DNA of 64,000 nucleotides from Polytrichum commune (Eukaryota > Streptophyta > Polytrichopsida > Polytrichales > Polytrichaceae), in NCBI GenBank assembly GCA_950295325.1, contig OX485807.1, forward strand, positions 8,521,001-8,585,000, read 5' to 3'. The translations under genes and the position numbers were made by a program. Shown in pieces: positions 1-8,157 of this stretch (position 1 is its first letter; each line of letters opens with the position of its first letter). A model generated the notes under the pieces. The model saw nothing but the letters and a program-made list of their open reading frames with translations. It did not search any database and was not told where the DNA came from.

Positions 1-1466
1 AGTGTGCGGTATTCTGCTTCTACAGTAGAAAATGCTACCGTGGGTTGTAGTTCACTACTCCAATGTATCGGTGTTCTCCTGTCTTAAAGATCATCCTTGT
101 TGTTGACTTCCTTTTGTCCAAGTCTCTACCCCAGTCTGAGTCTACATATGTTGTGCGTTCTGGTAGCAAACCTCCGTATTTATCTGTGCCTTCGATGTAG
201 TGGAGGACCCTCTTTGCCACTTCAAGGTGTGCCGGTAGCTGTGGTGCAGACATGAATCTGCTCAGGCAGTTTACCGCATACGAAATGTTTGGTTTGGTGT
301 TCGTGAGGTAAATGAGGCTACCTACAAAGCTTTGGAAAGTCGCGATATCGACATAGTTTGCATCCATGTTTGAGTGTAATTTTTCCCCTTCTTCCATTGG
401 AGTTGTTATTACTGCGCAACTTAGCATGTTGCATCTTTCCAGGAGATTGTGTGAATAGCTTCTTTGAGTTAATTCATAGATTCATGTAGAATTCATAAAT
501 TCATGTAGATTCATGTGACGCTACATGTGTGGTTAATCTGATGAACTCAACTCCTATGTAGAATGCCAGTAAGCTAGCTTCGACATCTCGAACTCGCTTC
601 CTATTCCCTCTGTAATGGTTAAATTGTAAGCATGCAGTTTCATGTGATCAGGAGAACATCCACGTATATCAAGACTATCAGGATTGGATCTCCTTCTTGA
701 TAGAAATAGAGGCTGTGGTCGGTATCACTTCCCATCATGCCAAAATCCGTTAAGAAATATGTATCTTGATGTACCATGCCTTACTTGCATGTTTTGAACA
801 TTAAATGGCCTTTTTTTAAGAGACATACCTTGTTGATGTCTCTTTCTGATGTGACTAGCGCATGAAGTATCTCCATGTGAACTATTTCTTCAAGGTCCCC
901 ATTCAAAAAAGCCGTTTTTACATTAATATGCTTGATATACTCATTGCAATCCATGACTATCATAGTCGGGGCAAAAGTGTCCTGGTTGTTGAGCCCCTCC
1001 TTCTGCTCGAATCCTCTCGCCACCAGCCTAGCCTTCAATTTCTTCATTTTGCCATCCAGTCATCTTTGTCTTTAATACCCATTTTGAAGCTATAGGGACG
1101 CTGCCCCTTGACAGATCCACTAATTCCCAAGTTCCATTTCTTTGAACTTCAAGCTCTTCATTCATTGCTTGAGTTTCAAACCCTGGGTGTCGCATAGTTT
1201 CTTCACCCATTTTGGGATCATTGAGATCGATCACGTAGAGGTAGTCTTCCGATCTTCGAATGCAATTTGAGCGCTTAAATCTTGACATTGAACCATGTCA
1301 ATAACCATTGCACTATGCTTCGCTTCATGCCGGAATATATTTCCTCTGGTGTAGTTCCCTTATTCTTCTTAGCTGGACACCTATTCGTGACATAAGTGGC
1401 AGTGTTGATCACCTCACTCCATGGATATGTAGGGGCATTGCAAAAAAATGCCTGGGGAGATATTTG
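1..1466 (-). mobile_element. Ty1/copia retrotransposon fossil, pol region, cut by window edge
   Basis: Minus-strand translations match the copia pol order integrase, reverse transcriptase, RNase H, read from high to low coordinates. The integrase tail lies at about 1290-1420 (short motif NTATYVTNR). The RT N-terminal part lies at about 780-1290 (KARLVARGF, VKTAFLNGDL). The RT end and RNase H start lie at about 35-430 (VGSLIYLT, YVDSDW). The low-coordinate end runs off the window. No LTR, gag or protease could be recognised, and a dispersed repeat starts at about 1466 where more integrase would be expected. The element is broken in several places (at least four) and looks old. Family assignment is strong from the motifs; the boundaries are uncertain. 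Confidence 0.85.
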
Positions 1467-4557: not shown

Positions 4558-6781
4558 TCAAAATTTCTTGCCAGACTGCTGCCACAAGTCAGCATCCTTC
4601 TTGACTCGTCTGACTCGCTTCAGAACACTCTCAGGATTCACATTCCCCACCACTGTCACCTTCTTGCTCCATTGGTCGCACAGGATATCTTCCAAACCTT
4701 CACAAGACACCAAAACATATATACATATATTGAGCTCCCGGTACTAGCCCAATTCATAAACACCACCCGTAACAAGACTTTTTATACGTTGAATTTCAAC
4801 ATAGGTGGAGGAACTTTGACTCACCATTCATGTATGACAGAGACGCCCTAACTTTTCGCTCGCAGTTGTCGCAGCAAATGGGGACCTTCAACTCCAAGGA
4901 CTGCGAGCGGCCCAACTGCCACATCAAAACGTCCCCATGTTAGCACCCAAAAAGAGAAATCCACAAAACATTATGCACAAGGTGCCGGAAAATAATAGTA
5001 CCGAGTTATCGACATGCATGGAAGTTACTTCAACACATGATGATGGAAGGGGAGATACAAATTAGAGGTGATGCTTCGTGTTAGGATGATGCAAGGAGCT
5101 GGGCCACAAGTTGCCGTACCTTGTTCTGGGCCTTGCCGCTGGCTCCCTGGACCTGTTGTTGTTGGTTTCCACCTTTAGCAGAGCTAGATTGGTTGTACTG
5201 AGCACCTTTGGAAGAGACATTGAAGTTCCCCCAATTCTCCTCTGCCGAAGAGTACCCCATGTCATCAAAGTCGACGCTCTTGCTCTTCTTCAAGCCACTC
5301 TTCTTGGCTCCGCCCATGATCATGGGACTGAGGTCATCCATGTGGCCGTTGTAGTGCTGCCCTGACTTCCCTTGCGAGCTGCCACCTGACTTCTTGGACC
5401 CCGAGCGGGTCATGTCATCGTATCCCTGGTTGGCGTAGCCCTGGTTGTCAAATCTGTTGTTGCTGGAAACCTTGCTCCCCTTCTGGTTATATTGGTCATG
5501 TCCACCACCGTTGTGGCTGTGGCTGCGGCTGCTGTTGCTACTGAGGCCTAAGGCCCACTTGACACCCTTCTTAATTGGGCTGTCATTATCCTCCTCATCG
5601 TCAGAAGTGTCATACTTGGAGCTGGACCGCTGTTGCGCATTGCCTTGCTTCATGGCAGACTTCGGCTTCTGCATGTTGCCATTGTACCCTGGCCCTTGGG
5701 AATTTTGAGCATAAGCCCAAGCCTCATCACCCCTTCCGTTGCTTGCAGAAGTCACGTTGTGGCCATTCCCAGTACCCTTGCTGACCTTGTTTGCTGATAC
5801 TCTGGAACCATTCATCCGGTTGTCGTCATCCTCATCGAAGCCACCGTTGCTTATCCACCCCCCATGGCCGTGTTGGCCATTGTAACCGTTCTGCTGCGAT
5901 GATTTGTTGCCCTTGGCCCCAGATTTCTTGCCAGAGGAGTTCACACGGTTGTCGTCATCATCGAAGTCATTCTGCATCCACATCCCCTGACCACCCTGGC
6001 CGCCATTGTATAACTGGCCCTGCGACTTGTTGCTCGACTTACCCGTAGGAGGCATCTTTGGAACACTCATGCTCCTTCCATAACCCTCCGTGGACTCTCC
6101 ACCACGCCACATCCCCTGTCCTCCGTTCATGCCATTGTATTGCATGTCTTGCAAGTTGCCATTACTCATGCTCTTGCCCAAAGATTTCTTGCTAGTGCCC
6201 TGCATATGACCTCGATCATCATCATACTCATTCTGCATCCACCCCCCTTGTCTAGCACCTCCACCACCCGTGGACTGATTCTGGCCTCCAGCCTTGCCGA
6301 AACCTGACTTCTTGGCACCGTTTGAGCCTCCACGGGAGTATTCATCATCGTCATCCTCGCTTACGTCGTTGTCTACGTACTTCGGCTGGCCACCCTTGCT
6401 CTGCGCTTTCGGGGGTCTGGAGCTCGCGGAGCTCGTATAATTGCCTCCAAAATTGTTGTGATCATCCCTGTACCCTCCGCCTCCTTGCTGCTGCTGGTAC
6501 TTCACTTGGGAGGCATCATACTGACTGTAACTCGGATCCCTCCCATTCATCTGCCGCATCTCGGGATGCTGCAGGTACCTTGTAAAGGTGTCGTCTCGCA
6601 TCTCCGGTCTCCTGTACTCCCTGAATGTGTCCTCCCTCTGAGGCATGTACTCCATCCCCGGCATGGACGCTCTCCGTGGCCCCATGGATGCTCTGTAGCC
6701 AGGATATTCATCGGAGGCAGCGTGCATGTGTTGTTGCTTCTGCAACATCCATGTTGTGGTTTCCTTCTGCCCATTGAAGAA
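4558..6781 (-). CDS. HMA-domain protein with long disordered N-terminal region (HIPP/NaKR-like)
   Basis: Three exons are read on the minus strand: 6781-5120, 4915-4825 and 4697-4558, with introns of 204 and 127 bp (donors GTACGG and GTGAGT; acceptors TGGCAG and TGTGAAG; a CTAAC branch-like site in the first). Numbering residues from a GTG at 6787, residues 1-556 are low-complexity, rich in Gly, Asn, Gln, Ser, Asp and Lys. They hold a 14-residue tandem repeat (51-64, 65-78: DTF..Y..PEMR) and three acidic-aromatic modules (WMQNEYDDD near 183, WMQNDFDDDD near 270, WISNGGFDEDDD near 311). Residues 557-632 form an HMA fold with the metal-binding CxxC at C571-C574 (ICCDNCERKV) and a KKVTVVGNV strand. 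There is no C-terminal CaaX box, so it is unlike typical isoprenylated HIPPs; domain order resembles NaKR1. A role in metal binding or chaperoning is inferred. The true start is unknown: no in-frame ATG opens this exon, the GTG sits in the acceptor (gtgcag), and an upstream exon is likely. Confidence 0.85.
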
Positions 6782-7092: not shown

Positions 7093-7258
7093 AACTAGAC
7101 ATTCCCCAACTTCTACAGCTAGTCACTCACTGCAGATATTTTGGCCAAACAGTAGCACAATGAACCATCAAAAAACAAAGCACTACATTCAAGCTGATCT
7201 GAGGCCTCTAAGCCTTAACCCACAACAACAAATTCAGATTAGAGGATTTGTATTTTCC
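7093..7258 (+). repeat. Diverged direct duplication, copy 1 (inside HMA gene 5' intron)
   Basis: Aligns with 7679-7835 in the same orientation, starting at AACTARACATTCCCCAAC and ending near GTATTTT. Identity looks like 70-80 percent by eye, with small gaps. No terminal inverted repeats or target duplications seen. Confidence 0.6.
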
Positions 7259-7678: not shown

Positions 7679-7835
7679 AACTAAACATTCCCCAACTGCT
7701 ACAGCTGGTCGCTTACTGCAGAAATTTTTGCCAACAGTATCACAATGAATAGTCATACATCGGAAAACAAAGGGCACTAAAATTGAATCTGATCCGAGAC
7801 TTCGGAGACTTGAGAATAGAGAGGTCGTATTTTGG
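7679..7835 (+). repeat. Diverged direct duplication, copy 2 (inside HMA gene 5' intron)
   Basis: Partner of 7093-7258, offset 586 bp. This copy overlaps the end of the candidate upstream exon frame on the minus strand (7949-7740), so the duplication may have copied part of an exon or its flank. Confidence 0.6.
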
Positions 7836-8157
7836 ATCTCGCACCTCATCCAAGGGAACCAAATTAGTGTGGCCGAGGCCGTAGAATGGCCGGGGGTCAT
7901 GAAAATAGTTTCCTGCCATGATCAACTCCAACCGCACTCCGTTAATCAAACGATTGAGCCGGCCGCCCCAGATAACAGAAACCCCTCCTTGATCAGATTC
8001 AACTCTTGTCTGATACCCAACTCTCGATCATAAGCACTTGAACCGCCAAATATACTCTTCAATATGTTAGCTACTCCAAGCCAGCTTCTGGACCTGCTGC
8101 ACCCACCAACCAACGCACGCCACGCTCCCGCCCACTAAAACTGCTCTAATCTGATCT

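What the first reader, a model, noticed from the sequence alone, without database searches (positions are those of the whole stretch)
4558..6781. HMA domain hidden in two short exons behind an in-frame stop
The 568-codon open frame (6787-5081) shows only a disordered protein with no domain. Reading a 204-bp intron from 5119 to 4916 joins it in phase 0 to an HMA domain with an intact CxxC (C571-C574), then a 127-bp phase-1 intron leads to the last exon and stop. The result is an unusual layout: about 555 disordered residues first, HMA at the very C-terminus, no CaaX box.
Basis: partly seen in the sequence, partly recalled or inferred. Interest (0 to 1): 0.72.

Follow-up and report, generated by a model that had tools for sequence, protein, structure and literature searches.

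The report
Plant metal-binding protein with disordered arm
A plant gene, probably from a moss, encodes a mostly disordered protein that ends in a small metal-binding-type domain; it looks like a genuine four-exon gene with sister copies, and the stop that hid the domain lies inside an ordinary intron.

Summary
Joining across 5119-4916 (204 bp, phase 0) and 4824-4698 (127 bp, phase 1) gives a C-terminal HMA domain with intact CxxC: 29.6 bits to Pfam HMA as an 82-residue piece, cut-off 24.8. The in-frame stop lies 12 codons inside an ordinary intron. Versions of it lie upstream of HMA exon pairs in four sister genes. The model is four exons, 655 residues, CxxC at C594-C597. Paralogs L029 and L030 keep four exons, phases 0/0/1 and a low-complexity second exon. 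HMA codons show purifying selection (pN 0.15-0.20, pS 0.54-0.76); introns 2 and 3 never beat the best of 100 shuffles. The layout is not unusual here: by my reading 10 of the 33 family rows put in the tree end in HMA. None of 34 C-termini read is a canonical CaaX box. By definition this is a non-prenylated heavy-metal-associated plant protein (HPP), with an N-terminal signature for which I found no description. No transcript data were available and function is inferred. Interest is modest.

The parts
7845..7919 (-).
   Evidence: Genome query found 4 places: window, L029, L030, L032, each upstream of an HMA exon; fifth version read in L031; 21/25 identical to L029, 14/25 to L030
6782..7844 (-). 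Intron 1, 1063 bp, phase 0, GTGCGA...GTGCAG; holds two copies of a 56-bp repeat
   Evidence: same position and phase in L029 (362 bp) and L030 (526 bp)
5120..6781 (-). Exon 2: 554 residues, starts FFNGQKETTTW, then Gly/Ser/Gln/Asn-rich low-complexity region
   Evidence: no Pfam match at E up to 1 for the frame 6760-5081
4916..5119 (-). Intron 2, 204 bp, phase 0, containing the TAA that ends the 568-codon frame
   Evidence: same position and phase in L029 (160 bp) and L030 (180 bp)
4825..4915 (-). Exon 3: first part of the HMA domain with CCDNC (CxxC = C594-C597)
4698..4824 (-). Intron 3, 127 bp, phase 1, GTGAGT...GTGAAG
   Evidence: same position and phase in L029 (167 bp) and L030 (260 bp)
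4558..4697 (-). Exon 4: rest of the HMA domain, C-terminus WQQSGKKF and stop TGA

Best explanation
This is a four-exon gene for a 655-residue heavy-metal-associated plant protein (HPP): a short conserved N-terminal segment (25 residues, then FFNG...W), about 560 low-complexity residues, and one HMA domain with intact CxxC at the very C-terminus, without a prenylation box. Shown by sequence: exon structure shared with paralogs, homology of the domain, purifying selection on it. Inferred: the gene is expressed and spliced so; the CxxC binds a soft metal ion (Cu(I), Zn or Cd) as in other HMA proteins; the conserved N-terminal segment docks the protein to a partner or membrane site, a job a prenyl anchor does in HIPPs; the low-complexity region is a flexible tether or scaffold whose length is little constrained.
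For: HMA hit to the joined exons. Same exons and phases in L029 and L030. Exon 1: the genome query found 4 places, all 4 upstream of HMA exons on the same strand; two of these (L029, L030) I had already seen by eye, so L032 is the new one, with L031 then read. HMA pN 0.150, 0.195, 0.173 against pS 0.756, 0.708, 0.544 in three pairs; introns 2 and 3 score below the best shuffle in 6 of 6 comparisons. Linker lengths 561, 467 and 376 residues, 13-17% VILFWCM.
Against: No transcript data. By eye, the intron 1 donor (GTGCGA) and intron 3 acceptor (GTGAAG) are weaker than those of L029 and L030. Full-length window protein and L030 score 24.5 and 24.1 bits, both just under Pfam's 24.8. The window's FFNGQKETTTW departs from the FYGxxEPxW form and is not matched by the DNA pattern. 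The clade window + L029 + L030 has moderate support only (90/81, not starred; bootstrap not settled). Metal binding, location, partners and the docking role are untested; disorder was judged from composition, not predicted.
Confidence: 0.7

Rival explanations
1. The main product is the intron-2-retained form ending at 5081: a purely low-complexity protein, with the HMA exons a minor addition.
For: The frame runs open 12 codons into intron 2; L029 and L030 also read a few codons past the donor before a stop.
Against: The three read-through tails share nothing (VRQLVAQLLASS, VLRLFLP, VSKLKLHHNSSTLIPSYS), while the HMA codons are under purifying selection. No transcript evidence either way.
Confidence: 0.06
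2. The HMA domain serves mainly as a protein-interaction surface rather than a metal carrier, as discussed for many plant HMA-like domains.
For: A review describes HPPs and HIPPs as frequent protein-interaction and effector targets (PMC12835825, passages); a long linker and conserved N-terminal segment suit a scaffold.
Against: CCxxC is present in all 33 family rows that I put in the tree (input; rows chosen by HMA homology), whereas the domains called HMA-like lack CxxC (passage).
Confidence: 0.25
3. The locus is a decaying pseudogene copy.
For: Two splice sites look weaker than in the paralogs; a retroelement fragment lies about 3.3 kb away.
Against: 655 open codons, conserved domain and CxxC, pN far below pS.
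Confidence: 0.03

Closest known systems
[quoted passage not shown] Arabidopsis NaKR1/HPP2
   Same: HMA domain with CxxC, no CaaX; NaKR1 also has a long N-terminal region before a C-terminal HMA (recalled; the 2010 NaKR1 paper is not held)
   Different: MAGxYF exon and FYG-type segment, CCxxC in the HMA, a 560-residue low-complexity arm; no comparison with NaKR1 itself was possible
HIPPs (isoprenylated), e.g. HIPP6 (30kx_D)
   Same: HMA domain by sequence (E 2.8e-8)
   Different: No CaaX; HMA at the C-terminus, while rice small HMA proteins typically carry it at the N-terminus (PMC11611257, passage)
Sister genes L029 and L030 in the same genome
   Same: Four exons, phases 0/0/1, first exon, low-complexity exon 2, C-terminal HMA
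   Different: Length (556 and 469 residues) and linker make-up (Gln/Ser/Gly/His-rich; Arg/Gly/Ser-rich)

Membership tests
HPP | At least one HMA domain (PF00403) | tested here: met
   29.6 bits for the 82-residue joined piece, cut-off 24.8; 24.5 bits in the full-length protein, just under the cut-off
HPP | CxxC metal site | tested here: met
   C594-D-N-C597
HPP | No C-terminal CaaX box | tested here: met
   Predicted C-terminus GKKF
HPP | Binds heavy metal | not testable with these tools
   Needs purified protein
HIPP | C-terminal CaaX isoprenylation motif | tested here: not met
   Ends in GKKF; of 34 family C-termini read, only L017 has Cys at -4 (CMPS, Pro in the third place)
NaKR subgroup | N-terminal region homologous to NaKR1-3 | not tested
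   No plant protein set available; NaKR1 layout is recalled only

The most novel reading that the evidence does not exclude
Non-vascular plants carry their own expanded HPP lineage in which a conserved N-terminal segment (MAGxYF...PLDE plus FYGxxEPxW) does the anchoring job that the prenyl group does in HIPPs, and a fast-changing low-complexity arm presents the HMA domain; the window gene is the long-armed extreme.
Probability: 0.2. Interest if true: 0.5.

Novelty: new variant of a known kind. Interest (0 to 1): 0.3.

Why it matters
It shows how a real domain can be lost when it is split over two short exons after a long low-complexity exon; even joined, the full-length protein falls just under Pfam's cut-off (24.5 against 24.8 bits). 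It also offers a testable N-terminal signature for a group of non-prenylated HMA proteins, relevant, if the plant is a moss, to how such proteins are placed in the cell without a prenyl anchor.

Tried and rejected
Layout as an oddity: rejected, sister genes share it. Retained-intron product: tails not conserved. Pseudogene: unlikely. Biopython dN/dS gave no usable dS for window-L029 and stopped at unequal lengths for the HMA pairs with L030, whose exon 3 I had mis-set by one codon; pN and pS were recounted with the corrected model. NCBIfam gave only weak hits far below cut-offs (CopZ_AFE_1862 24.6 bits against 85). Growth of exon 2 by a repeat unit: six short families of two or three copies, spaced 108 to 387 nt (129 nt in three families, 261 in two); Tandem Repeats Finder reported no 129-nt array, so this is weak. 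Organism: 5S/5.8S linkage inconclusive, as only 47 of 15,430 5S candidates were scored. Fold prediction was not attempted, since the spliced protein is not read letter for letter from the window.

Literature searches (listings only, rows seen of papers found): 20 of 49; 12 of 372; 15 of 24; 11 of 11; 12 of 102; 10 of 2,472; 12 of 56. No row seen described this signature or layout in a moss; open-licence papers only, so this is weak evidence of absence. Passages only were read in PMC10459601, PMC12835825, PMC7225358, PMC8267685, PMC11611257, PMC10049917, PMC8581813; no paper was read whole.

Changed on checking: I first counted the 6 of 6 FYG-pattern hits as support. The pattern was written from those same six loci (read), so one search shows only that no seventh place matches exactly. 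I also first left out two moss reports of HIPP-named proteins. For these reasons I lowered the novel case from 0.25 to 0.2 and the best explanation from 0.72 to 0.70.

Rows dropped: L040 (its two HMA pieces lie on opposite strands), the tree and the C-terminus list; L044 (fourth exon unresolved) from the tree and the list; L043 (near-copy of L042) from the tree. Exon 2 ends of L031 and L032 were not modelled. C-termini are ends of open frames and may be wrong where a further intron exists. One search fetched 20 regions; the other loci are short pieces that searches returned, so 34 members are not a full census of the 76 matches.

Full report
Observation. The 568-codon frame 6787-5081 on the minus strand is there. 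It reads 12 codons into a 204-bp GT-AG intron (5119-4916, phase 0) and stops. Joining the next exon (4915-4825) and, after a 127-bp phase-1 intron (4824-4698), the last exon (4697-4561, stop 4560-4558) gives an HMA domain with CCDNC. As an 82-residue piece it scores 29.6 bits against Pfam HMA, cut-off 24.8. It matches 9 distinct solved chains at E up to 0.01, best HIPP6 30kx_D (2.8e-8) and rice Os01g0507700, 8r7a_A (6.1e-8); others include immune-receptor HMA domains and copper chaperones. In the full 655-residue protein the domain scores 24.5 bits and in full-length L030 24.1, both just under the cut-off; a routine pipeline could miss it for that reason (inference).

The missed exon. The window lies in a 408-Mb plant genome. 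A query with the joined HMA piece gave 76 exon-level matches at E up to 1, the window's own two included. L029 and L030 on contig C3 have the same two HMA exons and a long open low-complexity frame before them. Their translations also showed a short upstream segment, MAGNYFFDPRPFYGLNNSNLVPLDE in L029, whose like lies in the window at 7919-7845. A genome search with the window version found 4 places: window, L029, L030 and L032, all 4 lying 1.6-3.1 kb upstream of an HMA exon on the same strand. Two of these I had seen before the search; L032 was new. A fifth version was then read in L031. A profile built from these five found no further copy in the 21 sources scanned, the window and 20 loci. 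The ATG at 7919 is the first in its frame after a stop.

Gene model. Exons 7919-7845, 6781-5120, 4915-4825, 4697-4561; introns 1063, 204, 127 bp; phases 0, 0, 1; 655 residues; CxxC at 594-597. L029 (556 residues; introns 362, 160, 167) and L030 (469 residues; introns 526, 180, 260) share the phases and GT-AG ends. By eye, the window's GTGCGA donor and GTGAAG acceptor are weaker than theirs.

Constraint. Over 62 HMA codons pN is 0.150, 0.195, 0.173 and pS 0.756, 0.708, 0.544 for window-L029, window-L030 and L029-L030. Over the 25 codons of exon 1 pN is 0.102, 0.226, 0.167 and pS 1.16, 0.50, 0.86, on only 15-16 synonymous sites. Introns 2 and 3 score below the best of 100 shuffles in 6 of 6 comparisons; window-L030 intron 2 comes nearest to standing out (-22, shuffled mean -30.7, best -14). 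The read-through tails after the exon 2 donor are VRQLVAQLLASS, VLRLFLP and VSKLKLHHNSSTLIPSYS. Splicing into HMA is thus the constrained state.

The low-complexity arm. Between exon 1 and HMA lie 561 residues in the window (16% Gly, 13% Ser, 9% Gln, 8% Asn; 13% VILFWCM), 467 in L029 and 376 in L030. Disorder is judged from this make-up only. Exon 2 holds six short repeat families, several spaced 129 or 261 nt, but Tandem Repeats Finder reports no such array; growth by duplication is a weak suggestion.

The wider family. In 9 of the 19 loci read an open frame upstream of the HMA exon holds a segment like FYGxxEPxW: six closely (L035-L038, L044, L045), three loosely (L046-L048). A DNA pattern written from the six close ones matches exactly those six places in 408 Mb and nowhere else, 0 in the backward control; this shows the segment is specific, and is not independent confirmation. 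Window, L029 and L030 carry divergent forms (FFNGQKETTTW, FFNGSRESMPW, LFYGREEMAPW). I labelled 10 of 33 family rows as ending in HMA; on the tree the label needs 2 changes, against a shuffled mean of 8.9. Only 10 of 32 inner branches are firm; window + L029 + L030 has 90/81. CCxxC stands in all 33 rows of that input. Of 34 C-termini read, one has Cys at -4 (L017, CMPS) and none is a canonical CaaX.

Function. HPPs and HIPPs share HMA domains with CxxC; HIPPs alone carry CaaX (PMC10459601, passage). By that definition this is an HPP. A review states that HIPPs appear exclusive to tracheophytes (PMC12835825, passage) and that HPPs were detected in the plasmodesmal proteome of the moss Physcomitrium (passage). 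Against a clean split, another study found HIPP-containing orthogroups in at least four of five plasmodesmal proteomes at low stringency, in an analysis that took in moss fractions (PMC10049917, passage), and a Syntrichia moss transcript is named HIPP 28-like (PMC8581813, passage); whether those moss proteins bear CaaX was not seen. NaKR1/HPP2, an HPP, acts in FT movement (PMC10459601, passage); its C-terminal HMA is recalled. My most likely mechanism is CxxC metal binding on a flexible arm of a protein docked by its conserved N-terminus. Only gene structure, homology and constraint are shown.

Organism. Seven contigs of 42-78 Mb make up nearly all of the genome. Six actinoporin-like matches (bryoporins in mosses are recalled), 13 S_locus_glycop matches (I recall many more in flowering plants) and the lack of canonical CaaX suggest a moss. 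Nothing here names the species.

Verdict.

Noticed in passing
window 35-1288 (-): Copia-type retroelement frames; 781-1047 hits RVT_2 (37.3 bits, cut-off 31.6), while 35-427 and 1028-1288 gave no Pfam match.
   Followed up: partly
window 7093-7148 and 7679-7734: A 56-bp direct repeat, 88% identical, 586 bp apart inside intron 1, which is two to three times longer than in L029 and L030.
   Followed up: partly
G000 C5:8.43-8.53 Mb and C3:32.67-32.79 Mb: Two clusters of HMA genes of this family (L036, L045, window; L038, L044, L029, L030), perhaps copies of one block (coordinates; synteny not tested).
   Followed up: no
window 5120-6781: Short repeat families in exon 2, several spaced 129 or 261 nt; no such array by Tandem Repeats Finder.
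   Followed up: partly
L017 (C4:13.67 Mb): Open frame ends in CMPS, the only one of 34 C-termini read with Cys at -4; perhaps an incomplete frame.
   Followed up: no
G000 C7:14.4 and 23.3-23.5 Mb: Six actinoporin-like (PF06369) exon matches.
   Followed up: no
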